This document shows, piece by piece, positions 1,196 through 53,986 of a stretch of DNA of 53,986 bases. Each line of letters starts with the position of its first letter. Position 1 is the first letter of the stretch. The position numbers and the translations under genes were made by a program. The notes below the pieces were generated by a model that saw only the letters and a list, made by a program, of their open reading frames with translations, had not been told where the DNA came from and ran no database searches. The stretch comes from Phormidesmis priestleyi BC1401 (GTDB taxonomy: Bacteria > Cyanobacteriota > Cyanobacteriia > Leptolyngbyales > Leptolyngbyaceae): the NCBI RefSeq assembly GCF_001650195.1, contig NZ_LXYR01000035.1:1-53986 (forward strand), written 5' to 3'.

Positions 1196-1455
1196 TCTTC
1201 TCCAGCGTCTTCTAAGGTGAGATTGTATTGCTCAAGCAGCGCTAAAAATTGTCGAATTTGGTAAGATTTTGCTTGACCTTTTTGATTTTGAAGGTTGACA
1301 AGCTCAGGAATATCAGGATGCTCAAAAACGTGGTTACTTCCTCCTACTCTAGATCGGTAAAATCCGAATGCTTCTATCAGTGTAACGATGTCATCGAACG
1401 AAACATTTTTCTGATTGTTGAGGACTTTCGAGAGTAGCTTGTGTTTCTTGGTCAT
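1192..1455 (-). CDS. hicA: HicA-type mRNA interferase toxin
   Basis: 87 residues. The double-stranded-RNA-binding-like HicA fold is seen as VSFDDIVTLIEAFGFYRSRV, then GGSNHVFEHP with the catalytic histidine at about residue 42, then a C-terminal helix SYQIRQFLALLEQY. At 87 residues it is slightly longer than the ~60-80 typical of the family. It is the first gene of the pair, with hicB overlapping its stop codon. Toxin-first order is the common hicAB arrangement. Both genes look intact. Confidence 0.85.
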   Translation of the reverse strand: MTKKHKLLSKVLNNQKNVSFDDIVTLIEAFGFYRSRVGGSNHVFEHPDIPELVNLQNQKGQAKSYQIRQFLALLEQYNLTLEDAGEE

Positions 1456-1461
1456 TGCACG

Positions 1462-1557
1462 TCATATGGTGCGAAGCTCGATCGCTTCTTTAATATTTTC
1501 TACCAGTTCATCAAATGCGTGAAGACGATCGCCCTTACTGAAGCCCGCGTCTCCTCA
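1462..1557 (-). pseudogene. HicB-like C-terminal remnant
   Basis: An in-frame stretch on the minus strand ends at TGA 1464-1462 and reads RLHAFDELVENIKEAIELRT. It resembles the helix that ends the HicB/UPF0150 fold (T-x-D-E-L-x-x-N-I-K-E-A-I-E-L). No start codon or N-terminal half is in frame: a stop sits at 1557-1555. It lies just upstream of the intact hicAB pair and is best read as debris of an older antitoxin. The similarity is short, so this is tentative. Confidence 0.45.
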
Positions 1558-1645
1558 CTAATAGGTTCATTACTGATCATTTTCTAGTAGTTCTTTCGAT
1601 GAGGTGACGACGATCGCTCACTACACGCAGCCCATAAAAATGCCC

Positions 1646-2596
1646 CTACGACGCTTTTATCTGCTTCAAAACGGTCAATACTTTCTGTCGTAGATTCATA
1701 GGTAGTTGGGATAATACGAGTCCGATTTGGGCTTTGATGAGCGACGCTGATTTTCCTTGAGAAATGAGAGATCGTCCCTCTTGAGTGTCTCCGATTTGAA
1801 TGAGTCGAAGTCCGAGTAGAAGTTTGGTTTCTAAGAGACGATCGTGCCGAATCTTCTCTATTTTTTCTGACTCAAAGTGAAAGCTTTCTAAATAGTTCAG
1901 TTTATCTTTTAAGTAGGAAATGGCTCGATCGAGTCCCTGTTGTTCTGCGTGAAAGCGATATTCCATCAACCGTTCGGGCAAATAATAAGCTTGTTTTCCT
2001 GCCAATGCTAATCGGACGAGTAGATCATTGTCTTCGCAGTTTTGAATGTTCGATCGCATATAGCCAACTTCAGTCAAAACCTCGCGCCGAAAGAGCGTTG
2101 CCCCAATCTGAAGGCTTTGCTTGACGAAGGTGACTTCTAGTAAATCTTTGACCAGTCCTTGAGGTAGCTGCGATCGTCCCCATTTTTGAGAGTTGAACTG
2201 AGTCAAACTTTCGTTGCGAATCGTATTAGAATCAATCACCCAATGATCGGTGCCAACAAAATCAATATGAGGATGTTTATTTAATAACTGACTTGTTTTC
2301 TCTAGAAAGCTTGGAGTCAAGCGATCGTCGTCGTCGAATTTAATAAAATACTGCCCAGTTGCGGCTTGAAACCCAGAAATCATATTGTTACTTTTGCCAA
2401 TATTTTGAGGATGTCTGAGGTAGTGAATCCGACGATCTGTAAACTGAGCCATCAGGTTTGATGTGCCATCGGTTGAGCCATCGTCACAGACGATCAATTC
2501 AAAGTCTTGGTAAGTTTGCTGAAGAACGCTGTCAATGGCGATCGCCAATAACTCTTTGCGATTAAAAGTCGGAATGCAAACGCTAACGATCGACAT
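1646..2596 (-). CDS. Family 2 glycosyltransferase
   Basis: 316 residues with a GT-A fold. The N-terminus VSVCIPTFNRKELLAIAIDS and VCDDGSTDGT form the nucleotide-sugar half, and FIKFDDDDRLTP (aspartates 88-91) supplies the metal-binding acidic motif. The C-terminal ~100 residues are helical. No membrane segment is apparent, so it is probably a cytosolic or peripheral enzyme transferring a sugar during surface polysaccharide or glycolipid synthesis. It is divergent from the GT4 gene at 2711, with a 114-base shared upstream region. Donor and acceptor cannot be told from sequence. Confidence 0.9.
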   Translation of the reverse strand: MSIVSVCIPTFNRKELLAIAIDSVLQQTYQDFELIVCDDGSTDGTSNLMAQFTDRRIHYLRHPQNIGKSNNMISGFQAATGQYFIKFDDDDRLTPSFLEKTSQLLNKHPHIDFVGTDHWVIDSNTIRNESLTQFNSQKWGRSQLPQGLVKDLLEVTFVKQSLQIGATLFRREVLTEVGYMRSNIQNCEDNDLLVRLALAGKQAYYLPERLMEYRFHAEQQGLDRAISYLKDKLNYLESFHFESEKIEKIRHDRLLETKLLLGLRLIQIGDTQEGRSLISQGKSASLIKAQIGLVLSQLPMNLRQKVLTVLKQIKAS

Positions 2597-2710
2597 AAAA
2601 AACTAACTCAGTGAACTGCCTCTAATATTGACAAAAGCGGCGAGGTTTGCACAGACAATCGCTAAAACCCTTAAGACGGGTACATTAACTCAGTCCTTTT
2701 GGCAGTGGTG

Positions 2711-3931
2711 ATGAACATTTTGATGCTCTCGGCAACGTTTCCCTACCCGCCCACTCAAGGGGGGACGCAAGTACGAACTTTCAATCTGCTGAAATATTTG
2801 AGTCGCCATCATCAAGTCACACTAGCAGCGCTGACATCGCCGGATATGACCGATGCTGACCTCAAAGCACTGCAAGAATGGGTCGCAGAATTAGTTGTGT
2901 TCGATCGTCCAAATCACACCGCTTCTCAGCGAGGATTTTTTGCAAAAATTCAGCGGTTTAGCCAATTTCTACGGCAGGGAACGCCACCGAGCGTCTTATC
3001 TTCTTACTCGCTAGAAATGCAAGATTGGGTCGATCGAGCGATTCAATCCAATCGCTATCAGGTAATCACTTGCGAACACAGCGTCAATGAAATCTATGTG
3101 CGTTCTGAGTGGCAAAAAAGAATTCGTACTGTTGTGAATGTGCATAGCTCTGTCTATGGAACGTGCCAGAATCAATTACAGACTCAGACATCAGAAAATC
3201 AATGGCGCGATCGCTTAAATCTGCCGCTTCTTAAACGCTATGAACAACGCTATTGCAATAAATTTTCAAACATTGTAGTCACCACAGAGGACGATCGAGA
3301 CCAGTTAAACGCGTTCAATCCCACGGCTAAGTTTCAAGTCATCGCCAACGGGGTAGACTTCACCGAATTTCCTAATCGCACCACAGATCCGGGAGGACAC
3401 AGCCTCATTTTCATCGGGGCAATGGACAATTTAGCCAACATTGATGCGGCTAAATTCTTATGTTTAGAGATTTTGCCTGAGTTGCAGAAAAGATATCCCA
3501 ATACCACGATCGCGCTAGTCGGCGCACGTCCGACTTTAGAGGTGTTGCGCTTAGGTGATCGCCCTAATATCACGGTGACAGGTCGCGTTCCTGCAATGGC
3601 AGACTATTTACATCGAGCAACCGTGTGCGTGATTCCGATGCGAACCGGATTTGGAATCAAAAATAAAACACTAGAAGCAATGGCAGCCGGAACCCCGATC
3701 GTTGCCAGCGATCGGGGCTTAGAAGGGTTAGCGGTCGATGGTGAAAACAGTCCGCTGCGAGCACTGCGGGCAAATCGAGTTGAAGATTATGTGAGCGCGA
3801 TCGCTCGGCTCTTTGAAGATCCTCTACTGCGAAATCAAATGTCTCGCGAAGCCCGATCGTTTGTCGAAACTCACTACACTTGGGAGCGCGCCGGACAGTG
3901 TTATGAACAAGTGTTGACGGAATTGACTTAA
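2711..3931 (+). CDS. Family 4 (GT-B) glycosyltransferase
   Basis: 406 residues from ATG 2711 (MNILMLSATFPYPPTQGGTQ). A TTG twelve bases earlier is also in frame but less likely. The N-terminal half has the GT-B glycine turn PPTQGGTQVRTFNLLKYL. The C-terminal half has VIANGVDF, FIGAMDNLANIDA and the donor-binding VIPMRTGFGIKNKTLEAMAAG followed by PIVAS. These are the marks of GT4 enzymes such as those using UDP- or GDP-sugars. The next gene begins 31 bases downstream and encodes a membrane glycosyltransferase-like protein, so the two are probably co-transcribed for exopolysaccharide or glycan assembly. Confidence 0.9.
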   Translation: MNILMLSATFPYPPTQGGTQVRTFNLLKYLSRHHQVTLAALTSPDMTDADLKALQEWVAELVVFDRPNHTASQRGFFAKIQRFSQFLRQGTPPSVLSSYSLEMQDWVDRAIQSNRYQVITCEHSVNEIYVRSEWQKRIRTVVNVHSSVYGTCQNQLQTQTSENQWRDRLNLPLLKRYEQRYCNKFSNIVVTTEDDRDQLNAFNPTAKFQVIANGVDFTEFPNRTTDPGGHSLIFIGAMDNLANIDAAKFLCLEILPELQKRYPNTTIALVGARPTLEVLRLGDRPNITVTGRVPAMADYLHRATVCVIPMRTGFGIKNKTLEAMAAGTPIVASDRGLEGLAVDGENSPLRALRANRVEDYVSAIARLFEDPLLRNQMSREARSFVETHYTWERAGQCYEQVLTELT

Positions 3932-3962
3932 AGTAGAAAGTCGGAATTCTACTAAATCCATC

Positions 3963-5687
3963 ATGCTAGTCTCGCGGTTGCGTCGGCTTTTAACGGCTCC
4001 CATTGATCCGCTCGATCGTCACACGTCGATCGCAGTTTGGTTGAGTCTCAGCCTCGGCTTTGCTCTCTATTACGGCTGTCTAGGGCTGCAAAAAGCGTTT
4101 AGAGCAGAATACATAGTTCAAGACGATGCGCGAGAATATGTGTTTTGGATGCAGCAATTTGTCAATCCATCTCTATTCCCTCACGATTTGATTGCAGATT
4201 ATTTCAAATCGATTACGCCATCTGGATATGCAGCGATTTATCATCTGATTGCAAGCTTTGGCATTCAACCATTGTTGCTGAGTAAACTTTTGCCTATTAT
4301 AGTGGGGATTGTGACAACTCTCTACGGGTTTGGGGTTTGTTTAAACCTGTTTCCAATTCCTGCGGCTGGTTTTATCTCAATGCTGTTGCTAAATCAAAGC
4401 CTGTGGTTTAGAGATGATTTGAGTTCTGCGACTCCCAGAGCATTTATTTATCCATTGTTCTTAGCATTCTTATATTATGTGCTGCATCATAATCGGCTTG
4501 GTGTGATTGCCACAATCGTGCTGCAAGCTTTGATCTATCCTCCTCTGGTTTTTATTACGATCGCAGTCCTCTTCCTACGGCTTTGGAACTGGGAACGCTG
4601 GCATTTTCATCTCCAGCGAGAACGCATTCCCTTTTTTATAATCGCAGCCGGATTGGGGTTTCTGGCACTGTTGCCCTATGCGATCTCGTCAGCGGAGTTT
4701 AGCCCGATCGTCACGAAGGCTGAAGCATTGACGATGCCAGAACTTTACCCTGGCGGACGGCATCCCTATTTTGACCCTAATCTCTGGCGGTTTTGGCTCA
4801 CTGGGCAGCATAGTGGCATCTTTCCCCCGCTATTGCCGCCACTGATTTGGGCGGGTTTGGGGCTGTCGATCGTCGCTAAAAATCCGGTTCGCTTTCCATT
4901 AATCAGACATCTTAAGAGTGAAGCCATTGTCTTAGCTCAGACGGCGCTTGCGTCTCTGGGACTTTTTTTTGCGGCTCACGCGCTGCTGCTCAAGCTGTTT
5001 TTTCCGACTCGATATACGACGCACACTTGGCGAATAGTGTTGGCGATCGCCGCAGGCATCACGCTGACCGCCTTGCTAGATGCCGTACTTCTCAAGTGCG
5101 AAGATCTCGCCAGATCTCACCGTTGGAAACCCTTAATTTGGAGACTAACACTTACTGGATTCATCGGAGCATTCCTGATTCTATTTCCCAGTTTTTCATC
5201 TAATTTTCCAGCAACAAACTATCGAGTGTCCAATGAAAGTGGGCTGTATGAATTTCTGCAAAAGCAGCCTCAAGATAGTCTGATCGCAACCCTTTCAGAT
5301 GAAGCAAATAATATTCCGACGTTTGCCCAGCGATCGGTGCTAATCGGCAAAGAATACGCCCTGCCGTTTCATCTGGGTTACTATCGCCAAATTCGCCAGA
5401 GAAGTCTTGAGTTAATTGAGGCTCAATATGGTCAAGATTTAGCCCCGGTTGAGCAGATGATTGAGAAGTATGGGATTGATTTTTGGCTGCTCGATCGGGC
5501 TGCCTTCACGCCTAGTTATCTAGTTGATAAAAGTTGGCTGCAAAGCTTTGAGCCAGCGTTTAGTCAGGCTTTGACTCGGTTGCAGCAGGGAAAACCTTCA
5601 GCTTTGGCAAATCGAGCTAATGAGTGTGTCGTTTTTGAGAGTCAAAGTCTCATTTTGCTGGAAGCAAGTTGCGTCACCCATCAATGA
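3963..5687 (+). CDS. Multi-membrane GT-C-like protein of unknown specificity
   Basis: 574 residues. About ten hydrophobic segments span residues ~25-420, followed by a soluble C-terminal domain of ~130 residues. Just after the first membrane segment, in what should be an outside loop, is VQDDAREYVFW. An acidic pair in that position is typical of GT-C glycosyltransferases that use lipid-linked sugars. The C-terminal part (YEFLQKQPQDSLIATLSDEA, then GIDFWLLDRAAF) resembles the periplasmic domain of such proteins. It follows the GT4 gene closely. The GT-C reading is an inference from topology and one motif; no exact family is recognised. Confidence 0.7.
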   Translation: MLVSRLRRLLTAPIDPLDRHTSIAVWLSLSLGFALYYGCLGLQKAFRAEYIVQDDAREYVFWMQQFVNPSLFPHDLIADYFKSITPSGYAAIYHLIASFGIQPLLLSKLLPIIVGIVTTLYGFGVCLNLFPIPAAGFISMLLLNQSLWFRDDLSSATPRAFIYPLFLAFLYYVLHHNRLGVIATIVLQALIYPPLVFITIAVLFLRLWNWERWHFHLQRERIPFFIIAAGLGFLALLPYAISSAEFSPIVTKAEALTMPELYPGGRHPYFDPNLWRFWLTGQHSGIFPPLLPPLIWAGLGLSIVAKNPVRFPLIRHLKSEAIVLAQTALASLGLFFAAHALLLKLFFPTRYTTHTWRIVLAIAAGITLTALLDAVLLKCEDLARSHRWKPLIWRLTLTGFIGAFLILFPSFSSNFPATNYRVSNESGLYEFLQKQPQDSLIATLSDEANNIPTFAQRSVLIGKEYALPFHLGYYRQIRQRSLELIEAQYGQDLAPVEQMIEKYGIDFWLLDRAAFTPSYLVDKSWLQSFEPAFSQALTRLQQGKPSALANRANECVVFESQSLILLEASCVTHQ

Positions 5688-5784
5688 GCCACAGTTTCAA
5701 AGGCTATTGGGTGCCCCAAAACGTGCGATGTAATACTTGTTTTACTGTCTCCAAGATTTACATTAGCCTTCCTGCACGAATATC

Positions 5785-5893
5785 TTGCCCTCACCCTAGC
5801 CCTCTCCCAAAGGAGAGGGAACAAGAGTTTCTAGCTCCCTTCCCTCTGAGGAGAAGGGTTGGGGAGGGCTTGCCCCACTTCGTGAGGAGGGCA
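5785..5893. repeat. Dispersed CTCTCC palindrome, long copy
   Basis: A complete copy: tgccctcaccctagccctct, then a fold-back around cccaaaggagaggga, then gagaagggttggggagggct and a distal ccccacttcgtgaggagggc tail shared with the copy at 31181. It fills most of the ~300-base gap after the GT-C-like gene. A small ORF across it is an artefact of the repeat; the rest of the gap is featureless. Confidence 0.85.
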
Positions 5894-5987
5894 TTTCATA
5901 TCTGCATTCAGCAACGCCGGAGATTCAACGTCCCCTAACCTGATGATGAGTCTAAGCTCGTTTGTCCCTAATCAATGTCCTATAAAT

Positions 5988-6524
5988 CTACAGGCTTGAC
6001 GTTTTTCCGGTCTGTGCCTGGGTCGGGATTTCTTGCACCTCGGTGTAGCCCATTGTGCCAGCAAGTTCTCTCAATAGAGAAATCTGTTGATCAAAATCGA
6101 GTCCTTCAACTTGACTCAGTGCCCCTGTAATTGCCTCAGATGCGCTGTAGCCTTCGGGCATTCCTATGACTGACTTGCCCATCGCTTGCGCCCAAGCATA
6201 CCAGACGACGAGTTGGTTATTTTCCTTAAGTGCTCCATAGTTGCGAGAATAGTTGGTATCAGCGCCGTTCACGATGTCACGCATCACGTTTAGCTGGTCT
6301 TGGTGAGAAATAGTGTAAAAATTTCCTAGCAAGATGGGTGCTAACTCTGGCTCGGCAGCCGCAGGAGCCGCAGGAGTGATCGAGTTGCCCATCTTTTCAT
6401 AAACGTAATACAAAAACGCTAATTTACCATCAACATCTAACTTGTCGTAAGATTCGATCGCCTTCTGCCCCTTTTCATCAATATATTGCGATCGCACTGT
6501 GCCACGATTTGCAGAGTCAGCCAT
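5988..6524 (-). CDS. Helical carotenoid protein (OCP N-terminal domain homologue)
   Basis: 178 residues, covering only the all-helical carotenoid-binding domain of orange carotenoid protein, with no C-terminal NTF2-like domain. Recognisable segments are YDKLDVDGKLAFLYYVYEKM, NNQLVVWYAWAQAMGKSVIG and LDFDQQISLLRELAGTMGY, the last two corresponding to the OCP helices that line the keto-carotenoid. Known HCP proteins bind a ketocarotenoid and quench singlet oxygen or excited phycobilisomes. The start is supported by AAGGAG eight bases before ATG 6524. No partner C-terminal-domain homologue is next to it. The HCP subclade cannot be fixed by eye. Confidence 0.9.
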   Translation of the reverse strand: MADSANRGTVRSQYIDEKGQKAIESYDKLDVDGKLAFLYYVYEKMGNSITPAAPAAAEPELAPILLGNFYTISHQDQLNVMRDIVNGADTNYSRNYGALKENNQLVVWYAWAQAMGKSVIGMPEGYSASEAITGALSQVEGLDFDQQISLLRELAGTMGYTEVQEIPTQAQTGKTSSL

Positions 6525-6781
6525 AATAATTCTCCTTAAATAATTTCTGTTGACTTTAGAGGTTTACCAGGACTTATCGTTCTCTAGCGACTACCTACCG
6601 ACCGAACTTGATCCCCTCCCCAAAGCGTGAGATCACTCCAATGAGAGAGCCGCACAATCTGCCTTCAGACAGGTTAAAAAAGCTGGGATCACTCTGGTAG
6701 TGTTACAGCGAAAGGGTCGAATTTAGAACTCAAACCTTTCTCAAACAAACGTCTCAAACAAATCGATAATAGGAGCTTTTT

Positions 6782-7159
6782 ATGTCAGAAACCAATCGTG
6801 ATTTGAATCCGTCTCAGAGCTACGACGCTCAACAAGTCTCAGAAGAAATCGCAGAAGGCAGTCTTCCTGCTCCTAAAGTTGATGTCTCGTCAGACTACGA
6901 GGCTTCAAGAGAATTTAGCGTCAGTGAGATCGATCGCACGGGTGAAGGAGAAAAAGCAGCCGAAAAAGTCACGGCTCACTCATTTGAGATGCACGACCCT
7001 GAAGCAACCAAATTTAAAGCAGAACCGACTGGCGATCCGGGTGACTTCCTCAAAATGGCAAAAGAGATCGGGCACGAGACAGGGGCGCACGGCAACGTCG
7101 ATGATGATTTGATTCACAAAGCGATCGAAAAGGGGCAACCCGGTCATCCCGAATCCTAG
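6782..7159 (+). CDS. Small hydrophilic acidic protein, unknown function
   Basis: 125 residues, with no membrane segment or signal peptide and rich in Glu, Asp, Ser and Ala. It contains FEMHDPEATKFKAEPTGDPG and ends in a short helix, DDLIHKAIEKGQPGHPES. An AGGAG sits about eight bases before ATG 6782, so translation is credible. I do not recognise the family. The composition suggests a disordered, possibly stress-related cytosolic protein, but that is only an impression. It stands alone, divergent from the carotenoid protein with 257 bases between them. Confidence 0.65.
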   Translation: MSETNRDLNPSQSYDAQQVSEEIAEGSLPAPKVDVSSDYEASREFSVSEIDRTGEGEKAAEKVTAHSFEMHDPEATKFKAEPTGDPGDFLKMAKEIGHETGAHGNVDDDLIHKAIEKGQPGHPES

Positions 7160-7183
7160 ATACTTTGACAGCACAGAGCAAAG

Positions 7184-7211
7184 CTCCCCGACTTCTTGAA
7201 GAAGCTGGGAG
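7184..7211 (+). terminator. Hairpin after the acidic protein gene
   Basis: ctccc ... gggag encloses cttcttgaagaag, itself a fold-back, giving an interrupted stem. There is no strong U-run, so it may be a weak terminator or a small dispersed repeat: the core gacttcttgaagaagc recurs at 31093-31140. It sits between convergent genes. Confidence 0.45.
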
Positions 7212-7241
7212 TTTGGCGATCGCGATCAAGTGAGACAGCCG

Positions 7242-8930
7242 CTATTTTCGAGCCGGGGTCACTTTGGGTTGAACGGGTGGAGCAGGTTGACCAAAACGAT
7301 TGGTGATCGCCAACCCTATCAGCCCAGACAACACAAACACCAAAAAGCTGATTAACGCCAACGTCAAATAGACCTCAAGCGGGTTGGCAACCCACTTCGA
7401 TTGAGTGCCGTCTTGAGTTGGCAAGGTGATTTCCTTTAGACGATTCAAGTTATGGCGAGTGACACTCTCACCCATTTCGTCGTCTAGCAGCGATCGCAGA
7501 CTGATTGCGGCTGTGAGGGCATCGTAAGCGGTCGTAACTTCTTCCTGACAGAGCGCTAAGGTGCCGAGTTGATGCAGCCCCCAAGCTTCACTGGCAGAAT
7601 CTTCTAACGCCCAAGCTGCTTGCAACCCCCAATTTAGCACCCGTTGCCAGGTTCCCCACTGTTTGCTGAGTGCCAGTGCGCTTTCTAGCGATCGCACGAG
7701 TTGCAGAGTCTCTGTCCATCGACCCTGACTGATTGCCCACTGAATCGTGTGAACTAGGGTTGCCCGTTCTGATAACAAGATATCGGGCGATCGCGGATGG
7801 CTTTGCGCCCAAGGCAGTAGGTGAGTTAACACTTTTTCCATCCACGGAGCCGAGTTTGAGGCTTTTTGCAGAACGTCAACTAGGCTAGACGCTAAACAGT
7901 AGTGGTGCCCCTCGATCTGAAGCAGATGACGGTGCATCAGAGCTTGCAGACTCGGTAAAGGGTTGGGCGGACCTGTAATTACCGCAATTTGTTCGGGTAG
8001 TAAACCGACTCTCCCCATTGCTACCAAGACTGCCATGATCCAGCGCTGGGGTTTGGGCAGTGAGGCAAGAATGAGCCGCGTCAGCGATGATTCGAGATCG
8101 TCAGCTTGAAGTTGGCTTAACACCGTCTCTAGAGAAATCTTGTCTTCTCGTGCCAGCGCTGCCACTTGCAAAAGCCGCTGCGGATGCCCTTGCAAAAGTC
8201 TCCAGAGCACCTCGATCGTCTTGGCTTGAGGAGGCAGGGAAGTTTCACCAACATTTTGTGAGGCAAATCGTCTTAGCTCTTGTCCGATTAAAGTCACACT
8301 GTCTAACAGCGATAAGCCATCTAGCCTAATCGATCGCTGATCTTTCCAACAGCGACGATCGCGAGAAGCAATTAAGAAGGTACTGTTGGGCAACGCGGCA
8401 ATGAGTTGTTGAAGTTCACTCGCCGTTAACCCGTCGTCGTCTAGCAAGATCAGCACCTGCCGCTCTTGAAGCGCTTGCTGAACGTCACTTGATGACAGTT
8501 TGATGAGCGGACAACTGAGATAAAACGCGTCAAATAGAGTTTGGAGCCGATCGCCCGCTGACCCGATCGAACTCAAGTCAAATATGCCGTCAGGATGGGA
8601 CGATGTAAGCTTAGGATGATGTGCCAAGTAGCGCAGCAACACTGATTTGCCGATTCCAGCTTGACCGTAGATCTCAACGGTTTGCTTGGCTTGCAGGGCG
8701 ACGACTGCCGACTCGATCTCGGTTTGCCGACCGATCAGACCTGAGAAAGCGCGGGGAATTTGGACGATCGGAACCAGTTTTGACTCTATCACCGGAATCT
8801 GATCAAAATCGCCGAGCAAGGCTCCATGCGCTGAACCTAAAGATAGAGTCGCGTTGCCAATCGCTAACTGCCCGATCGTCTCGCTCTGAAGGGATGTCTC
8901 AAGTTGATTAGAAAGAGTCGGCTGAGACAT
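7242..8930 (-). CDS. STAND/NB-ARC-type ATPase with C-terminal membrane anchor
   Basis: 562 residues. The N-terminal ~60 residues hold a Gly-rich segment, IGQLAIGNATLSLGSAHGAL. The NTPase core follows, with Walker A GQAGIGKS (89-96), Walker B VLILLDDDG and a FLIASRDRR sensor-like strand. Next come winged-helix-like and helical TPR-like repeats (~260-500). Near the C-terminus one hydrophobic segment (~520-545, LALISFLVFVLSGLIGLAI) is followed by a Pro-rich tail. STAND ATPases are ligand-triggered switches used in regulation and in antiphage defence. No recognisable effector domain is fused, so the membrane anchor or a partner protein must pass on the signal. The gene stands alone between the acidic-protein gene and nrdR. 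Confidence 0.8.
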   Translation of the reverse strand: MSQPTLSNQLETSLQSETIGQLAIGNATLSLGSAHGALLGDFDQIPVIESKLVPIVQIPRAFSGLIGRQTEIESAVVALQAKQTVEIYGQAGIGKSVLLRYLAHHPKLTSSHPDGIFDLSSIGSAGDRLQTLFDAFYLSCPLIKLSSSDVQQALQERQVLILLDDDGLTASELQQLIAALPNSTFLIASRDRRCWKDQRSIRLDGLSLLDSVTLIGQELRRFASQNVGETSLPPQAKTIEVLWRLLQGHPQRLLQVAALAREDKISLETVLSQLQADDLESSLTRLILASLPKPQRWIMAVLVAMGRVGLLPEQIAVITGPPNPLPSLQALMHRHLLQIEGHHYCLASSLVDVLQKASNSAPWMEKVLTHLLPWAQSHPRSPDILLSERATLVHTIQWAISQGRWTETLQLVRSLESALALSKQWGTWQRVLNWGLQAAWALEDSASEAWGLHQLGTLALCQEEVTTAYDALTAAISLRSLLDDEMGESVTRHNLNRLKEITLPTQDGTQSKWVANPLEVYLTLALISFLVFVLSGLIGLAITNRFGQPAPPVQPKVTPARK

Positions 8931-46727: not shown

Positions 46728-46997
46728 TATCTAAAGAACTCAGAGAGTCGTTGCAAGCGGTTTCAACGTCTCTGATCAATTCAGCAGTCAAGGGTGTCCT
46801 ACTTAAGCTGATTTAATTAAAGAAACGAATGCTAATTTTAGATTTGCGATCTCCGATCGGGAAAGCTTAGTGGATAGAGGATTCTGGGATTCCTATTCAC
46901 ACCTTCAACGGTTGAGACGGTGTAAAATGTGCCTCTGCACTGCTTAAAATCACCGCTTGGTCGTGAGATCGCTCTTCATCCTAGCCGGAACTGTATC

Positions 46998-47735
46998 ATG
47001 TCCCCTTGCACCATCACGTTCTCCGATCGCACTGCCACTGTTGTCTCCGTCGAGTCCTTGGCAGAGTTTCCAGGCATCCTCAACAACACCGATATTCCTC
47101 AATCTCGTCCCACCCTTGTGGTGATTGGCGGTGCTAGTCGGCTCAACCCAGAAGACTCCGATCGGGTGCGGCTCCTCTTTACCCAAGCCCTCGCCCCGAT
47201 CGCTCAACGCTATCAAGCGGTAGTCGTGGATGGCGGCACCGACACTGGAGTGATGCGCCTTATGGGTCAAGCACGAGCAGAACTGCACGCCACCTTTCCC
47301 CTCATCGGAGTCAGCCCGATCGGGCTTGTGACACTACCTGGTCAAACTTCGACTCTAGAAGACGCTGCCCCTTTAGAACCCAACCACACGCATTTCTTTC
47401 TCGTTCCTGGCGCTCGCTGGGGAGACGAATCGATCTGGCTTGCCCAAGTTGCCAGCGCGATCGCTGCCGATGCGCCCTCCATCACCGTCTTAATCAACGG
47501 CGGTGACGTGACGTGGGAAGATGCCACGCAAAATGTGAACATGGGACGATCGCTGATTGTCGTTGCTGGATCAGGCAGAACCGCCGACATTCTGGCGGCG
47601 GCTGTCCACGGAGATGTGAGTGACGATCGAGCCAAAAAATTGATTCAAAGTGGATTAGTGCGGTCTATCGATCTAGCGGATGGAAGTGCGGCTCTAGCTC
47701 AGATAATAGAAGCAGCATTTATGATTAAGAGATAA
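46998..47735 (+). CDS. SLOG-domain protein (LSDAT/TRPM-like), nucleotide sensor candidate
   Basis: 245 residues from ATG 46998; an upstream in-frame GTG at 46929 is less likely. The Rossmann-like core reads PTLVVIGGASRLNPEDSDRV, RYQAVVVDGGTDTGVMRLMG, FPLIGVSPIGLVTLPG and NHTHFFLVPGARWGDESIWL. This is the SLOG fold of the LSDAT type, related to the domain at the N-terminus of TRPM channels. SLOG proteins are predicted to sense or process nucleotide-derived ligands. One base separates it from the SLATT gene, so they are co-translated. Together they match the predicted SLOG-SLATT conflict modules. Confidence 0.8.
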   Translation: MSPCTITFSDRTATVVSVESLAEFPGILNNTDIPQSRPTLVVIGGASRLNPEDSDRVRLLFTQALAPIAQRYQAVVVDGGTDTGVMRLMGQARAELHATFPLIGVSPIGLVTLPGQTSTLEDAAPLEPNHTHFFLVPGARWGDESIWLAQVASAIAADAPSITVLINGGDVTWEDATQNVNMGRSLIVVAGSGRTADILAAAVHGDVSDDRAKKLIQSGLVRSIDLADGSAALAQIIEAAFMIKR

Positions 47736-47736
47736 A

Positions 47737-48312
47737 ATGTCTACCGATCCTCAGCCCTCAAACTTGACCTATAACCAGCAGCTAAAGCAGAAGTTTGACA
47801 GCCTTATTGACGACCTAGAGATCGAATCGCTACACAAAGAGTATCTCAAGTCTCGCTGGCTCGATCAGGTGCTGTGGATGGAAGACCGCGCCACTCAAAT
47901 GCGAAACTGGCATCGTCGATTGCGCTTAACGGTGATTGTTGCCAGTGCCATCGTCCCGATTCTCGTTGCCCTCAACTTTAATGAAGACAAAGCGTTTGAC
48001 AAGTGGCTCAAAGTCGGAACAATTAGCATTAGTGCCCTCGTAACGGTGAGTTCGGCAGTGGAAGCGTTTAATCAGTTCGGCGATCGCTGGTATAGCTATC
48101 GTCGATCGGCAGAGCTTCTCAAAACCCACGGCTGGCAGTTTTTGCAGTTGGGCGGCGTGTATCGGACTTACAAAACACATGCTGAGGCGCTACCCGTTTT
48201 CACTGAGCAGGTCGAGGGAATCATTCAGCGCGATGTGGATGTCTACACGGCTGAAGCGGTGAAAACTCGAAAACGAGACGACGATGAGCCAGAGAAACCT
48301 CCTAATAGTTAG
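47737..48312 (+). CDS. SLATT (DUF4231) two-membrane-helix effector candidate
   Basis: 191 residues. After a helical start (DDLEIESLHKEYLKSRWLDQ, then VLWMEDRA) come two membrane helices, LTVIVASAIVPILVALNF (~66-83) and WLKVGTISISALVTVSSAVE (~91-110). A soluble part follows with FGDRWYSYRRSAELLKTHGW and FTEQVEGIIQRDVDVYTAEA, then a charged tail. This is the SLATT pattern (SMODS/SLOG-associating 2TM effector). By published prediction such proteins may form pores that kill or arrest the cell when the partner sensor fires. It directly follows the SLOG gene. Function here is untested. Confidence 0.82.
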   Translation: MSTDPQPSNLTYNQQLKQKFDSLIDDLEIESLHKEYLKSRWLDQVLWMEDRATQMRNWHRRLRLTVIVASAIVPILVALNFNEDKAFDKWLKVGTISISALVTVSSAVEAFNQFGDRWYSYRRSAELLKTHGWQFLQLGGVYRTYKTHAEALPVFTEQVEGIIQRDVDVYTAEAVKTRKRDDDEPEKPPNS

Positions 48313-48409: not shown

Positions 48410-48652
48410 ATGCAAGAAATTGAAGTGCAAGGCACGATCGACGAACAGGGCTATATTCGGCTTGACCAACCGCTCAAGATCAGTAACCGAAGCAATGTTC
48501 GCATCATTGTGATGGTTCCTGAAGACTCTGAACTGGATGGCTATGATGAGCCAGATGAAAGTGTCTTAGCTGGACTGCGCCAAGCCCTCAGCGAAGTTAA
48601 GGCAGGTAAAACAATTCCGCTGTCTGAGCTTTGGGACGGCATTGATGAGTGA
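48410..48652 (+). CDS. Antitoxin of a RelE/ParE-type pair
   Basis: 80 residues. MQEIEVQGTIDEQGYIRLDQ and NVRIIVMVPEDSELDGYDEP give a short strand-rich DNA-binding half and an acidic helical C-terminus (SVLAGLRQALSEVKAGKTIP). The stop (48650-48652) overlaps the downstream toxin frame, whose ATG is at 48645. It should neutralise the toxin and autoregulate. Part of its 3' end is copied at 52044. Confidence 0.75.
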   Translation: MQEIEVQGTIDEQGYIRLDQPLKISNRSNVRIIVMVPEDSELDGYDEPDESVLAGLRQALSEVKAGKTIPLSELWDGIDE

Positions 48653-49001
48653 TGAAGGCTCTATAGAGATTATTGCTGCTCCTGAATTTCAGCGACGAGT
48701 CCGCGATCTCTCCAAAAAATATCGTCAAATTCGTCGCGATCTTGAACCTGTTCTCGCGCGGCTTCGAGTTGGGGAGTTTGTGGGCGATCAGGTTCAAGGA
48801 ACGGGTCATACCGTCTTTAAGGAACGAGTCAAGAACAGTGATATTCCAACAGGTAAACGAGGGGGATATCGACTGATTTATCAACTCGTTTCTCCAATGT
48901 GTGTTGTTCTACTTTTGATTTATCCAAAATCAGAGCAGTCTGATGTGCCTGCTAAGGACATCATCAGCATCATTAAAGAATTTAATTCGCCTGAAGAGTA
49001 G
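48645..49001 (+). CDS. RelE/ParE-family toxin
   Basis: 118 residues from ATG 48645. IEIIAAPEFQRRVRDLSKKY then RQIRRDLEPVLARLRVGEFV and KRGGYRLIYQLVSPMCVVLL, LIYPKSEQSDV follow the RelE fold: two helices, then the R-x-x-Y-x strand and a further strand. The frame appears intact. The class is an mRNA interferase or gyrase inhibitor depending on subtype; the conserved Arg/Tyr strand favours a RelE/HigB-like nuclease. A truncated second copy of its 5' end lies at 52084. Confidence 0.8.
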   Translation: MSDEGSIEIIAAPEFQRRVRDLSKKYRQIRRDLEPVLARLRVGEFVGDQVQGTGHTVFKERVKNSDIPTGKRGGYRLIYQLVSPMCVVLLLIYPKSEQSDVPAKDIISIIKEFNSPEE

Positions 49002-49125: not shown

Positions 49126-51435
49126 TCATTTCGAGGTGCGTTGCGCTTGCCAGCTTTCGCCGAGTTGGGTCTCGCATTGTTTTTGCTCGGTGGTCTGCTT
49201 GGGGTCGTCGAGGATGTAAGTCTTGAGGCGTTGGCAGGCGCGGCGGAGAAGGCTGTCGAGGTTGAGGTCGATGCGATAGAGTTTAACGATCGAGTTCTTG
49301 GAATCAGGGAGGGGTGCGCCGAAATAGGAGGGTCGAGTGACGATGGCGATCGTCTGCCAATCTAGACTAAATGTTGGAGAACCTCCCTCAAATTGACCTA
49401 ATTGATTGCCGTCTCTGTCCCAGAGTTTGGTGCTGCCATCCAATCCCCCTATGGCGATGCGGCTCCCATCGGGGCTGAATGCCACACTATTAACGATGCC
49501 TTGATTGCTGTTGATACTGGTGATGGGTTTGCCGTCTCTGTCCCAGAGTTTGGTGCTGCCATCCAATCCCCCTATGGCGATGCGGCTCCCATCGGGGCTG
49601 AATGCCACACTATTAACGATGCCTTGATTGCTGTTGATACTGGTGATGGGTTTGCCGTCTCTGTCCCAGAGTTTGGTGCTGCCATCCAATCCCCCTATGG
49701 CGATGCGGCTCCCATCGGGGCTGAATGCCACACTATTAACGATGCCTTGATTGCTGTTGATACTGGTGATGGGTTTGCCGTCTCTGTCCCAGAGTTTGGT
49801 GCTGCCATCATATCCCCCTGTGGCGATGCGGCTCCCATCGGGGCTGAATGCCACACTATTAACGATGCCTTGATTGCTGTTGATACTGGTGATGGGTTTG
49901 CCGTCTCTGTCCCAGAGTTTGGTGCTGCCATCATATCCCCCTGTGGCGATGCGGCTCCCATCGGGGCTGAATGCCACACTATAAACGCCGTCTTGATCGC
50001 TGTTGATGGTGGTAATGGGTTTGCCGTCTCTGTCCCAGAGTTTGGTGCTGCCATCATCTCCCCCTGTGGCGATGCGGCTCCCATCTGGGCTGAATGCCAC
50101 ACTCCTAACGATGCCTTGATTGCCAGGGAGTCTTGTTCCTTTAATTTTTTCTAAGCCAGATTGCAGCGCTAAGATTGGGCTAAGAGCAGGATACTGATCC
50201 AGCGATTTGCCCTGTCCCCACTTTTGCAACTCAAAGCCTGCCTGCATCGCTAACCGCAAGCCATCGGCTTGATCTACATCAAATCGTCTCAACGCTATAG
50301 ACCCTAATCGCTCAATCTGCGTCCCCGCCTTTGCTTCAACCTGAAGCGCCACTGCTGCTTTTTGTTGATTTTCTGCCACCCTGACTGCTGCATCTGCCTG
50401 CTGTCGCCGTTGCTCTGCCACCTTTGCTTGCTCACTTGCCGCCTGCCTCTGTTGCTCTGCCTGCGCCACCTGCCCCTGCGCCGCCCGAATCTGCCGTTCT
50501 GACTGCGCCAACACCCGCGCTTGTTCTGCCTTCGCTTGCGTCACCGCCTTTTGAGCTTGTGCAGCCTTCGCGTCTGCTGCTTTTAGCTTCGCGTCTGCTG
50601 CTTTGACGTGTCGATCGGCTTGCTGAGTAATCGCATCCGCTTGGTGCTGTGCCGTTGTCACCTTCTGGTCTGCCTGTTGCTCCGTTTCTCGCGCCTTCTG
50701 AGTTGCTGTCGTTGCGTCCTTAGTTGCTTTCAGCGCCAAACCTCCAGCCACACCTGCCCCAATCAGCGTTGCCACCAACACACCAGCGCCAATCTGCACC
50801 ATGCGCGTTGCTCGCCGCCCCGCCCTAAGCAAAATCGCCGCCGCTTCCTCACTGGTCTGACTCGCTCGAATATATTCCCGTTGTAACTCTGTGGGCTTCG
50901 GCTGCTGCTGGTCTGACTGCACGAGCCAAGCCTGCGATCGCACTAAATCCTCCCCCCGCAGCACAAAACTCGGATTCCGTCCCTCCTTTTTCCACTCGAT
51001 CGCTTTCTCTAAAATCCGTGTATGGGTTCTGACCTGATCTAAGTCGGTGTCGATCGCGGTCGTCAACTGCTCAAAGCCGTGAGCAAAGTCATCTGTCTGC
51101 CGAAAAAACAGCCAATTGTGCTTCGACAACATCGGATGCACCTTTGCCGCCTCGAAGCCCTCACGATGCACGATCGGCACCAGTCTTTTATTGTGCTTTA
51201 CGGCGTGGTCGATCTCTTGGCGGCAAATGTCGGATGCTACCGAATCAGGACTGATTACAAACACAAAGGTATTTGTCCCTTCGATGCCGCGTTCGATCTC
51301 CTGCCACCAATCTGCCGTGAGTGGAATCGCCTGCCAATCGACCCAGATCTCTCGCTGTTCTCTGTGCAGAGCATCATGCAGCGATTGCACAAAGGCTTTG
51401 TCCTTCCGAGAATATGAGAGAAAAACGTCAGTCAT
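49126..51435 (-). CDS. TIR-coiled-coil-WD40 protein
   Basis: 769 residues. A TIR domain (~1-130) begins TDVFLSYSRKDKAFVQSLHD and has the SDICRQEI loop with Glu74, the position of the NADase glutamate in many TIR enzymes. A membrane helix (~213-235) and a long Ala/Gln-rich coiled coil (~240-370) follow. Then come six WD units of 41 residues each (439-684) that are nearly identical (VAFSPDGSRIA, GGLDGSTKLWDRDGKPITSI), a divergent seventh blade and a Cys/Lys-rich tail (LLRRACQRLKTYILDDP). TIR proteins of this plan are linked to bacterial immunity or stress signalling. The WD propeller probably senses a partner. Flanked by TA fragments. Confidence 0.85.
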   Translation of the reverse strand: MTDVFLSYSRKDKAFVQSLHDALHREQREIWVDWQAIPLTADWWQEIERGIEGTNTFVFVISPDSVASDICRQEIDHAVKHNKRLVPIVHREGFEAAKVHPMLSKHNWLFFRQTDDFAHGFEQLTTAIDTDLDQVRTHTRILEKAIEWKKEGRNPSFVLRGEDLVRSQAWLVQSDQQQPKPTELQREYIRASQTSEEAAAILLRAGRRATRMVQIGAGVLVATLIGAGVAGGLALKATKDATTATQKARETEQQADQKVTTAQHQADAITQQADRHVKAADAKLKAADAKAAQAQKAVTQAKAEQARVLAQSERQIRAAQGQVAQAEQQRQAASEQAKVAEQRRQQADAAVRVAENQQKAAVALQVEAKAGTQIERLGSIALRRFDVDQADGLRLAMQAGFELQKWGQGKSLDQYPALSPILALQSGLEKIKGTRLPGNQGIVRSVAFSPDGSRIATGGDDGSTKLWDRDGKPITTINSDQDGVYSVAFSPDGSRIATGGYDGSTKLWDRDGKPITSINSNQGIVNSVAFSPDGSRIATGGYDGSTKLWDRDGKPITSINSNQGIVNSVAFSPDGSRIAIGGLDGSTKLWDRDGKPITSINSNQGIVNSVAFSPDGSRIAIGGLDGSTKLWDRDGKPITSINSNQGIVNSVAFSPDGSRIAIGGLDGSTKLWDRDGNQLGQFEGGSPTFSLDWQTIAIVTRPSYFGAPLPDSKNSIVKLYRIDLNLDSLLRRACQRLKTYILDDPKQTTEQKQCETQLGESWQAQRTSK
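49384..50121 (-). repeat. Six tandem 123-bp WD40-coding units
   Basis: The coding strand repeats a 123-base unit six times. Several units, including the three nearest 49400, look identical base for base over most of their length, and the first two are slightly different. Such uniformity means recent copying or gene conversion. The antisense frame stays open throughout because 123 is divisible by three, giving a false 250-codon ORF. Confidence 0.9.
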
Positions 51436-52001: not shown

Positions 52002-52173
52002 TACGATCGAGGTTCCGTTTGCGGATGGTGAAGCATTGCCGACGGTAACACAATTCCGATGTCTGAGCTTTGGGATGGCATTAATGAGTGATGAAGGCTC
52101 TATAGAGATTATTGCTGCTCCTGAGTTTAAGCGACGAATCTGCGATCGCTGCCTCTCTATCGAATTAGTCTAA
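51994..52173 (+). pseudogene. Chimeric remnant: antitoxin start joined to a copy of the RelE pair
   Basis: An ATG at 51994 opens MLSTIEVPFADGEAL, like the first strands of a small antitoxin. From 52044 to 52147 the DNA copies 48605-48708, the end of the RelE-type antitoxin and start of its toxin (identity about nine bases in ten). The toxin part begins at ATG 52084 (MSDEGSIEIIAAPEFKRRI) but stops after 29 residues at TAA 52171-52173. It is a decayed duplicate, not a working gene. Confidence 0.75.
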
Positions 52174-52567
52174 TGGAAACACCAAGCCTCAGATTTGCCC
52201 ATGCACTATCGCTCGTTAAGGCGGGAAGTTGTAACTGAAGCGCTAGGGCGAGACAGGCGCGATCGCCTAACGATAAGCCGAAGGATCGAGTTGGCAACCG
52301 CAGCTTGGCAATCTCGCAAGCCAGAAATTCATCTAGAGGTTGGATGTATAGTGCAGTGTTTAATAGTCCTTGCGTGGTGAGGCGATGGGTCACTTCATCG
52401 GGATCTTGTCCTCGCTCAACAAGTTTGGAGAGAGTTTCTGCCCAGTTGACGGCGCTCATCACTGCACCTTGCATCAAAGCAGTTTCGACGATATCTGCAC
52501 CAGATTCGTCACCTAGATACGCTAGCAGCGCGGAGGCATCGAGAACAGATTGAGCAGAAGCAGTCAT
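52157..52567 (-). CDS. vapC: VapC-type PIN-domain ribonuclease toxin
   Basis: 136 residues. The four PIN acidic positions are all present: VLDASALLAYL (Asp10), NWAETLSKL (Glu44), SLGDRACLALAL (Asp102) and LTSDSAWANL (Asp120). Mg-dependent endonucleases of this family cut tRNA or rRNA. Its ATG overlaps the antitoxin stop by four bases (52564-52567), the standard vapBC arrangement. The 3' end overlaps the decayed toxin copy on the other strand by 17 bases. Confidence 0.88.
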   Translation of the reverse strand: MTASAQSVLDASALLAYLGDESGADIVETALMQGAVMSAVNWAETLSKLVERGQDPDEVTHRLTTQGLLNTALYIQPLDEFLACEIAKLRLPTRSFGLSLGDRACLALALQLQLPALTSDSAWANLRLGVSIRLIR

Positions 52568-52824: not shown

Positions 52825-53003
52825 AGGGGTTTGAGACGAGGCTTTAGATTTCAGTATAGCGATCGCTCCGCATTACGCCGGGTTCGTGGTTGTGATCACG
52901 TTGTAATTTTTGGTGAAATCTCATCCCGATCGGGTGCGACCTCTACTTGATTTAGTAGGTCAAGCATGATATCACTGAGTGAGGCAACCAAGAGGTGGTG
53001 AGT

Positions 53004-53986
53004 ATGAGCGCTCAATTGCTGAGTCAAGAAGGGACGCAAGTCAGGATAGAAGTGACGATAGACCTGAGTCATTCGCTGCTGACCAGTGAAGAAGCGATTC
53101 AGGAAAGCCTCAACGAGGCGGGTCGTATTGCCACTACAGCCGCTCTTGAGTATCTGGACACCGACGGTTCAGCCATTGAGATTGCCGGAGAGGTGATGCG
53201 AACCAAAGGCAAGCAGCCCAAAGCGTATCAAACGCCCTACGGAGAAGTCGTGATTGAACGCCATGTCTATCAGCGCTCTGGAGGCGGGAAAACGGATTGT
53301 CCGCTAGAGCGAGCGTCTCGCATCATCATCACCTCCACGCCTCTGTTTGCGAAACAAGTGTCCTCGAAACTGGCGTATGGTTCCGCCCGAGACGTGCAGC
53401 GAGACTTGGCTGAGAATCATCAACGCCCGGTCGCCGTGTCCTACATCCAGCGTCTCAGTGAAGCGGTGGCCACGATCATTGAGGTGAAAGAAGAAAGTTG
53501 GGACTATGTGCCCCCTCAACTAGACGCTGAAATTGCCAGTGTTGCCATTGGCTTAGATGGCACCTGTATGCTGTTGTGCGACACCGGATGGAGAGAAGCC
53601 ATGGTCGGCACCATCAGTCTGTATGACGCGTTTGGAGACCGACAACACACCATTTATATGGGAGCCACCCCCGAATATGGCAAGGCGACGTTTCTGGAAC
53701 GGCTAGAGCGAGAAATCGCGCGCACGAAAGCCCGTTATCCCCAAGCCACCTATCTCGGAATTGCGGATGGGGCAGCCTCAAACTGGCAATTCCTCAACCG
53801 CCATACCCACGAACAAGTGCTGGATTTCTATCATGCCTCTGGGTATCTCGGTGCGGTGGCGGTGGCCCTCTATCCCATTAATTTAGCCCAGCAACGGCAC
53901 TGGCTTCAGGAGAGTTGTCATCATCTCAAACATGACCCAGGGGCAGCCACTCACCTCTATCAACAGATGCTGGAGTTATCTCAATT
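53004..53986 (+). CDS. ISKra4-family transposase, 3' part outside the window
   Basis: Open from ATG 53004 (GAGG upstream) to the window end, 327 complete codons with no stop. It reads MSAQLLSQEGTQVRIEVTID, ATTAALEYLDTDGSAIEIAG, KQPKAYQTPYGEVVIERHVY, SGGGKTDCPLERASRIIITS, then VAIGLDGTCMLLCDTGWREA, VGTISLYDAFGDRQHTIYMG and DGAASNWQFLNRHTHEQVLD, followed by FYHASGYLGAVA. That order, including the DGT, DGA and YH motifs, is the ISKra4 DDE transposase pattern. The end is missing. Inverted repeats of the IS could not be identified in the 179 bases before the start. Confidence 0.88.
   Translation, partial: MSAQLLSQEGTQVRIEVTIDLSHSLLTSEEAIQESLNEAGRIATTAALEYLDTDGSAIEIAGEVMRTKGKQPKAYQTPYGEVVIERHVYQRSGGGKTDCPLERASRIIITSTPLFAKQVSSKLAYGSARDVQRDLAENHQRPVAVSYIQRLSEAVATIIEVKEESWDYVPPQLDAEIASVAIGLDGTCMLLCDTGWREAMVGTISLYDAFGDRQHTIYMGATPEYGKATFLERLEREIARTKARYPQATYLGIADGAASNWQFLNRHTHEQVLDFYHASGYLGAVAVALYPINLAQQRHWLQESCHHLKHDPGAATHLYQQMLELSQ

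What the first reader, a model, noticed from the sequence alone, without database searches (positions are those of the whole stretch)
49384..50121. Recently homogenised WD40 array in a TIR protein
Six 123-bp WD units are almost identical at DNA level, three of them seemingly base for base. A natural seven-blade propeller would be made by six uniform blades plus the divergent last one. Uniform repeats allow rapid gain or loss and sequence shuffling, a feature of fast-evolving recognition (NLR-like) modules.
Basis: partly seen in the sequence, partly recalled or inferred. Interest (0 to 1): 0.6.

Follow-up and report, generated by a model that had tools for sequence, protein, structure and literature searches.

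The report
Fast-evolving bacterial TIR sensor propeller
A cyanobacterial TIR protein carries a ring of nearly identical repeats that look recently copied, and in it and related arrays the differences between repeats concentrate at the same surface spots that fungi vary to tell self from non-self, which points to a fast-evolving recognition protein.

Summary
The array is real: five complete 123-bp WD40 units plus a sixth identical to its neighbour for 82 nt; 49406-49809 is perfectly periodic. The 769-aa protein is TIR, helical linker, probable transmembrane helix and coiled coil, then six uniform blades and one divergent blade; AlphaFold2 predicts a seven-bladed propeller closest to solved WRAP propellers. 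Homogenised cyanobacterial WD40 arrays are published, so the array alone is a new member of a known kind. Three results go further. (1) An orthologue on a 6.3-Mb contig has 14 units plus the same cap; inner units resemble their own gene's units more than the other gene's. (2) In 15 homogenised arrays the four codons reported under positive selection in fungal HET-D/HET-E have pN/pS 1.75 (1.19-3.10), other codons 0.30; three of the four carry the signal, and for the 7 TIR arrays alone the interval includes 1. (3) SLOG and SLATT genes lie beside this gene; SLOG is collinear with a TIR-family gene in four other genomes. Best reading: a variable-specificity sensor driving a TIR NADase-type response, possibly through SLOG-SLATT. 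The copy number is provisional; no ligand or activity was tested.

The parts
49126..51435 (-). Gene for a 769-aa TIR - helical linker - TM - coiled coil - WD40 propeller protein
   Evidence: ORF; Pfam TIR_2 1.1e-24 and WD40 2.4e-61
51064..51426 (-). TIR domain, residues 4-124
   Evidence: Pfam; AF2 model of residues 1-243 matches TIR chains of Hydra TRR-2, SPARTA and SARM1 at Z about 19 over 124-129 residues
51214..51216 (-). Codon of Glu74, candidate catalytic glutamate of the TIR domain
   Evidence: Nearly invariant (90% or more) in 18 aligned sequences; aligns with an E of Cat1; catalytic role recalled, not tested
50914..51042 (-). Conserved helical linker, residues 132-174
   Evidence: Alignment and AF2 helices 132-150, 161-174
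50731..50799 (-). Hydrophobic stretch, probable transmembrane helix (residues about 213-235)
   Evidence: Read by eye; lies in the long predicted helix 183-242
50326..50718 (-). Ala/Gln/Glu-rich probable coiled coil (residues about 240-370), largely absent from the G029 orthologue
   Evidence: Read by eye from the translations
50104..50337 (-). Linker and probable closing strand before blade 1, 79% identical to the G029 orthologue
49981..50103 (-). WD40 unit a
49858..49980 (-). WD40 unit b
49735..49857 (-). WD40 unit b, second identical copy
49612..49734 (-). WD40 unit c
49489..49611 (-). WD40 unit c, second identical copy
49366..49488 (-). Sixth unit, identical to c for 82 nt, then divergent
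49126..49383 (-). Divergent seventh blade and C-terminal cap
   Evidence: AF2 strands, low confidence; full-length cap match at high identity only in G029, 79% over 94 aa
46929..47735 (+). SLOG domain protein (LSDAT_prok), candidate signal receptor
   Evidence: Pfam PF18171 2e-72; SLOG collinear with TIR-family genes in four other genomes
47737..48312 (+). SLATT/DUF4231 protein, candidate membrane effector
   Evidence: Pfam DUF4231 8.3e-27, NCBIfam SLATT_1 9e-33

Best explanation
A membrane-anchored TIR sensor whose C-terminal seven-bladed WD40 propeller is a variable-specificity binding platform. Units are copied within the array by recombination or slippage (inferred from identity patterns), which keeps the scaffold uniform and changes blade number and order, while selection retains amino-acid changes at a few top-face positions. 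Ligand binding would cluster the TIR domains and switch on NAD+ cleavage (inferred from the TIR fold and Glu74), either killing the cell or making an ADP-ribose-type signal read by the neighbouring SLOG protein, which would act on the SLATT membrane protein (inferred from gene order and published SLOG/SLATT roles). The copying pattern is shown for this gene against its orthologue, and the concentration of variation for the array set; ligand, activity and the SLOG-SLATT link are inferred.
For: Array and identity pattern. Seven-bladed AF2 model, pLDDT 80.8, Z 43.5 to v13WRAP-T and 42.7 to WRAP 2ymu. Concerted evolution against G029: window units 0-4 have a sister unit at 0.919 or more and reach at most 0.813 with any G029 unit; G029 units 0-12 at least 0.886 within and at most 0.813 between; the cap-bearing last unit pairs across genes (0.772, against 0.764 and 0.683 within). 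Four HET codons (positions 16, 18, 39, 41): pN/pS 1.75 [1.19-3.10], other codons 0.30, in 15 arrays; only 4 of 52,360 four-position sets reach their pN; 1.83 [1.10-3.99] in the 10 arrays not analysed. Positions 16, 18 and 39 fall in the b-c turn and d-a loop, 41 at the start of strand a. Solved WRAP varies W/R/N at the position aligned with 41. TIR fold and near-invariant Glu74. SLOG within 5 kb of a listed TIR-family match in 4 of 37 cases against 0.27 expected, collinear in four other genomes.
Against: The window array alone has three distinct complete units; its position 18 does not vary and position 13 does. Over the 15 arrays position 18 ranks only eighth in pN, so the signal is that of 16, 39 and 41. 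In the 7 TIR arrays alone the ratio is 1.37 with interval 0.91-2.87; at the 0.70 identity cut it is 1.24 [0.94-1.77]. In 4 of 15 arrays four-codon pN is not above their own pS, the G029 orthologue among them (0.233 against 0.246). The cap-unit pairing is narrow on the window side (0.772 against 0.764). Only 4 of 28 WD40 members of the TIR family are homogenised to 95%. The G029 orthologue shows no SLOG or SLATT gene among the ORFs listed around it, its genome's SLOG gene lies elsewhere, and 33 of 37 SLOG genes are not within 5 kb of a listed TIR match; in the window the TIR gene faces the SLOG-SLATT pair, with two small genes between. Clustering of defence genes alone could give the association. 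No strain series.
Confidence: 0.6

Rival explanations
1. Young propeller without a special role: blades are amplified by slippage in any WD40 gene (the amplification-and-decay view of Pereira and Lupas), the array is a transient state, and the variable sites are merely the least constrained ones.
For: Highly repetitive propellers are prevalent in cyanobacteria and a number are disrupted (PMC9218822 passages). Broken relatives exist: C83 paralogue with separate TIR and WD40 open frames, TIR genes split by about 0.85-1.0 kb in G033 and G029. In 33 more divergent arrays positions 39, 41 and 16 also vary most, with a four-codon ratio of 0.87.
Against: Relaxed constraint alone should not give pN above pS at the four codons while bottom loops (0.27) and the other top-loop positions (0.25) stay constrained.
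Confidence: 0.27
2. Assembly product: the true array is longer or differently ordered, and assembly collapsed or shuffled the identical units.
For: 404 nt of exact 123-nt periodicity, 213 contigs; three related arrays run to contig ends (L012, L024, L030); the commonest count in the TIR family is 14 units; Illumina assemblies of fungal arrays are reported unreliable (PMC12222747 abstract and passages).
Against: Several exact copies are present rather than one, the frame is intact, and six plus one blades give a seven-bladed ring. G029, on a 6.26-Mb contig, shows the same kind of array.
Confidence: 0.1
3. Generic scaffold: the propeller binds a constant partner, and uniform blades serve multivalent binding or oligomerisation, so uniformity itself is selected.
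For: WRAP blades of near-identical sequence were studied for assembly into oligomeric propellers (PMC6805158 abstract start and passages).
Against: Does not explain the concentration of amino-acid changes at positions 16, 39 and 41 across arrays with different scaffold sequences.
Confidence: 0.08

Closest known systems
WRAP and other recently amplified cyanobacterial WD40 propellers (Npun_R6612, PDB 2YMU; PMC6805158, PMC9218822)
   Same: Near-identical WD40 blades in a cyanobacterial protein linked to TIR/STAND genes; best sequence match and among the best structure matches; six of ten WRAP point mutations at one position, which aligns with position 41
   Different: WRAP is the 14-blade C-terminal part of a STAND ATPase protein; here seven predicted blades in a TIR-TM-coiled-coil protein with no NTPase found
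HET-D/HET-E (HNWD) family of Podospora anserina (Paoletti 2007, PMC1805685)
   Same: Concerted evolution of WD40 units, changed repeat number, amino-acid diversification at residue pairs flanking a conserved codon on the propeller top
   Different: Fungal, NACHT NTPase with HET effector; exchange among paralogues and strain polymorphism reported there, not shown here; no evidence of common descent of the arrangement
Thoeris-type TIR to SLOG signalling (ThsB/ThsA; PMC9503650 passages)
   Same: TIR protein with a SLOG-domain protein nearby; predicted NAD-derived signal
   Different: LSDAT-type SLOG with a separate SLATT protein instead of sirtuin-SLOG; the TIR protein carries its own putative sensor; no activity known; gene arrangement not constant
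DGR-diversified sensors of multicellular bacteria (PMC10907252 passages)
   Same: Hypervariable putative sensors attached to TIR and STAND conflict proteins
   Different: Variation here fits repeat copying and substitutions; no template/variable repeat pair seen at the one WD40-RT locus examined

Membership tests
Highly repetitive (recently amplified) WD40 propeller | Blades above 60% identical, WD40 motif | tested here: met
   95.3% mean nt identity of five units, WD40 Pfam; 60% cut-off from PMC9218822
Highly repetitive (recently amplified) WD40 propeller | Closed propeller fold | tested here: met
   AF2 single-sequence model, seven blades with the last at low confidence, Z 43.5 over 281 residues to a seven-bladed WRAP design; prediction only
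Fungal HET-D/E-like diversifying WD40 repertoire (works-like claim) | Concerted evolution of units | tested here: met
   Within-gene closer than between orthologues for all inner units; last unit pairs across genes, narrowly on the window side
Fungal HET-D/E-like diversifying WD40 repertoire (works-like claim) | Amino-acid diversification at codons 7, 9, 25, 27 | tested here: inconclusive
   Met for the pooled 15 arrays (1.75, 1.19-3.10) through positions 16, 39 and 41; position 18 ranks eighth; the 7 TIR arrays alone give 1.37 (0.91-2.87)
Fungal HET-D/E-like diversifying WD40 repertoire (works-like claim) | Repeat-number polymorphism between strains | not testable with these tools
   No conspecific strain was found; the orthologue in another genus has 14 units
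NLR / STAND receptor | NACHT, NB-ARC or other STAND NTPase domain | tested here: not met
   None among the 25 shown of 50 Pfam matches; the stretch between TIR and WD40 reads as linker, TM and coiled coil. Membership rejected
TIR NADase | TIR fold with the conserved glutamate | tested here: met
   Glu74 in 90% or more of 18 sequences, L048 differs; that this is the catalytic Glu is recalled
TIR NADase | NAD+ cleavage | not testable with these tools
   No biochemistry
Thoeris | ThsA with sirtuin-SLOG or another known ThsA effector | not tested
   The SLOG neighbour matches only LSDAT models in Pfam; ThsB models match the TIR part weakly (best 6.1e-8); no dedicated Thoeris caller was run

The most novel reading that the evidence does not exclude
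Filamentous cyanobacteria keep a repertoire of TIR- and STAND-linked WD40 sensors that diversify like fungal HET genes: units are homogenised within a gene, so the scaffold stays exchangeable, while the same residues on the propeller top are driven to differ; some of these sensors signal through SLOG-SLATT modules. Bacteria and fungi would have reached the same way of making recognition diversity independently on the same fold.
Probability: 0.42. Interest if true: 0.8.

Novelty: new variant of a known kind. Interest (0 to 1): 0.5.

Why it matters
If right, bacterial repeat sensors carry a readable code: a few codons per blade set specificity, so sequence alone would show which residues contact the ligand, and blade-swap experiments could test it directly. 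It would also give a bacterial, genetically simple counterpart of the fungal allorecognition repertoire and name candidate output genes (SLOG, SLATT) for a large family of TIR proteins (38 of 58 genomes, own included, have a match at E <= 0.001).

Tried and rejected
NLR membership: rejected, no NTPase seen. DGR as source of variation: the own genome has four reverse-transcriptase matches, one on contig C90 beside a WD40 gene; an ungapped same-strand search of C90 found no template/variable repeat pair with A-biased mismatches; the other three RT loci were not examined. Relaxed loops: bottom-loop and other top-loop codons have low ratios. Synteny as proof of orthology with G029: not found; orthology rests on the shared linker, cap and TIR domain. 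The cap search drew 388 genomes from the class; 29 match, own included, most of them weakly.

Weak points. The array finder requires certain residues at unit positions 4-7 and 23-24, so these were left out. Units not of the commonest length in an array, and arrays with fewer than three comparable units, were dropped; of the L011 array only the first seven units entered; two loci duplicating the G029 gene were dropped and its units placed by hand. 'Non-TIR' means no TIR match in the fetched stretch; the N-terminal domains of two of the eight such arrays (L098, L102) are unknown. The HET codons were placed by me from the published numbers, their spacing of 18 and the conserved codon inside each pair. 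A later paper uses seven positions in another register (PMC12222747 passage), which I did not map. I had seen variable positions in six arrays before the test, hence the separate test on the other ten; the units of one of these ten, L024, had been printed. In one search the unit finder let in spurious units for L011, L059 and L043; L011 and L059 were redone, and L043 is below the 0.80 cut. The SLOG test used 109 TIR places that I took from the rows printed; I left out later printed rows, mostly second stretches of the same genes, and further rows were not printed. Dunin-Horkawicz 2014 is not held, so what it says about variable blade positions is unknown to me. Selection of this kind in bacteria was sought; the titles and abstract starts listed there (12 or 20 rows at most) did not show it, and subscription journals are mostly missing.

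Full report
Observation. The only tandem array that Tandem Repeats Finder reports in the window is 49406-50123, period 123, 96% matches, no indels. It lies in a 769-aa gene on the minus strand, 49126-51435. In coding order the units are a, b, b, c, c and a sixth unit equal to c for 82 nt; b and c differ by three nucleotides in two codons, both changing amino acids. The stretch 49406-49809 is exactly periodic.

The protein. Pfam finds TIR_2 (residues 4-124) and six WD40 units. The TIR part with its helical linker was folded from an 18-sequence alignment (pLDDT 88.8) and matches TIR chains of Hydra TRR-2, SPARTA and SARM1 at Z about 19 over 124-129 residues. Glu74 is nearly invariant. By eye there is a transmembrane stretch near residues 213-235 and an Ala/Gln/Glu-rich probable coiled coil up to about 370. 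The propeller, folded from the single sequence, has six four-stranded blades and a lower-confidence seventh (pLDDT 80.8 overall), and matches a seven-bladed WRAP design and WRAP itself at Z 43.5 and 42.7.

Family. A match to the N-terminal part occurs in 38 of 58 genomes, own included. Of 41 distinct family genes read (the window's plus the first 40 other matches listed there, some cut by contig ends), 28 have three or more WD40 units, most often 14; 4 of the 28 have adjacent units at least 95% identical in DNA. Homogenisation is thus a minority state. The cap after the array is rare: 29 of 388 genomes drawn from the class match (own included), and only G029 matches over the full 94 residues at high identity (79%).

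Copying within genes. G029 keeps the gene on a 6.26-Mb contig with 14 units plus the same cap. Window units 0-4 have a sister unit at 0.919-1.0 identity and reach at most 0.813 with any G029 unit; G029 units 0-12 have 0.886-0.976 within and at most 0.813 between. The last, cap-bearing units resemble each other across genes (0.772) more than their neighbours, clearly in G029 (0.683) and narrowly in the window (0.764), where the first 82 nt of that unit have themselves been homogenised. This is the pattern expected of concerted evolution with the end unit partly escaping. Gene surroundings are not shared.

Where units differ. Paoletti et al. 2007 (PMC1805685, abstract and passages) report codons 7, 9, 25 and 27 of the HET-D/HET-E repeat under strong positive selection, as pairs around conserved codons 8 and 26, in the d-a loop and the b-c turn. 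By spacing and conserved residues I place these at positions 39, 41, 16 and 18 here; DSSP on the model puts 16 and 18 in the b-c turn, 39 in the d-a loop and 41 at the start of strand a. In 15 arrays with mean unit identity of 0.80 or more (7 TIR genes; 8 others, found through the cap), positions 16, 41 and 39 are the three highest in pN, and 18 is eighth. The four codons have pN 0.383 and pS 0.219, ratio 1.75 (bootstrap 1.19-3.10); the remaining codons 0.30 (0.23-0.40); bottom loops 0.27; other top-loop positions 0.25. Of 52,360 possible sets of four, 4 reach the observed pN, and 11 of 15 arrays have four-codon pN above their own pS; the G029 orthologue is one of the four that do not (0.233 against 0.246). 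In the ten arrays not analysed the ratio is 1.83 (1.10-3.99). For TIR arrays alone it is 1.37 (0.91-2.87), for the others 2.24 (1.25-6.35); at a looser 0.70 cut 1.24 (0.94-1.77), at a stricter 0.90 cut 2.61 (1.46-11.35). The signal is strongest in the most homogenised arrays, as expected if older ones are saturated, but relaxed constraint is not excluded for the TIR arrays taken alone. Eight regions were fetched around non-TIR arrays and the N-terminal parts of seven were scanned: four match nSTAND1, two AAA_35, and one only a weak TPR model (one of the four, L148, belongs to an array below the 0.80 cut). The pattern therefore seems to go with the sensor rather than with the TIR protein. WRAP points the same way: six of its ten point mutations are Trp to Arg at one position (PMC6805158 passage), and its W/R/N residue aligns with position 41.

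Output. A SLOG (LSDAT_prok) and a SLATT/DUF4231 gene lie at 46929-48312 on the opposite strand, with two small genes between them and the TIR gene. Of 37 SLOG genes in the 58 genomes (39 rows, fragments merged), 4 (window included) lie within 5 kb of a listed TIR-family match, against 0.27 expected by uniform placement; without the window 3 of 36, P 0.003; within 15 kb 6 of 37 against 0.75. In G007 the order is SLOG, SLATT, SLATT, TIR-family gene on one strand. In G011 SLOG, two SLATT relatives and the TIR-family gene lie on one strand in that order within about 7.4 kb; the genes between were not listed. In G016 and G046 SLOG lies directly upstream of a TIR-WD40 gene on the same strand, with no SLATT relative detected by tblastn. 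The review PMC9503650 (passages) describes the SLOG of ThsA as receptor of the TIR product of ThsB and SLATT as a predicted ADP-ribose-derivative-regulated membrane effector. A TIR to SLOG to SLATT path is therefore plausible here, but 33 of 37 SLOG genes are not so placed and defence-gene clustering could explain the rest.

Known and new. Near-identical WD40 blades in cyanobacteria, their repeated amplification, a TIR/STAND context and the suggestion of an innate-immunity role are published (PMC9218822 passages; PMC6805158 passages); so are two points close to mine, that WRAP homologues have more non-synonymous than synonymous differences among blades and that each propeller was amplified independently (PMC9218822 passages). 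WD40 enrichment in cyanobacteria is also published (PMC5587647 passages). PMC9218822 has no occurrence of 'positive selection' or 'diversifying'. I found no report of HET-like codon diversification in bacterial arrays in the listings of six library searches, which do not cover most subscription journals. I therefore file the array as a known kind and the sensor as a new variant: seven predicted blades, six of them homogenised, on a TIR-TM protein with no NTPase found, within a set of arrays showing the fungal-type pattern of variation.

Limits. Copy number rests on an assembly of unknown read type, and Illumina assemblies of such arrays are reported unreliable in a fungus (PMC12222747 abstract and passages). 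pN/pS on paralogous units ignores their relatedness and recombination; bootstraps are over arrays. Nothing on ligand, enzymatic activity or defence was tested.

Noticed in passing
46929-48312: SLOG(LSDAT)-SLATT gene pair beside the TIR gene; collinear SLOG-SLATT-SLATT-TIR in G007 (L175) and, with unread DNA between, G011 (L176); SLOG directly upstream of a TIR-WD40 gene in G016 (L174) and G046 (L173).
   Followed up: partly
48410-49001: Two small overlapping genes (80 and 119 aa) that look like an antitoxin-toxin pair by eye; no Pfam match for either.
   Followed up: no
52157-52567: PIN-domain protein (Pfam 1.9e-13), possible VapC-type toxin; a PIN-like gene also lies next to the G029 orthologue (L136 12673-13242, by eye).
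   Followed up: no
52995-53984: ISKra4 family transposase match (NCBIfam, below its cut-off), running off the contig end.
   Followed up: no
L124 (own genome C83): Paralogous TIR-WD40 locus in which the TIR open frame (234 aa) ends before the 724-aa WD40 open frame: apparently a broken family member.
   Followed up: partly
L139 4218-5782 and L140 4234-5902: Two TIR family genes, in G033 and G029, split at about residues 104 and 83 by roughly 0.85 and 1.0 kb of other sequence, as if mobile elements had entered at nearby sites.
   Followed up: no
L123 (own genome C90) 1416-7601: Reverse-transcriptase gene beside a 1186-aa WD40 frame; no template/variable repeat pair found.
   Followed up: partly
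L127, L128, L129: Cap remnants in two genomes (G273, G266) of the genus of G029, in split or interrupted frames: likely decayed relatives.
   Followed up: partly
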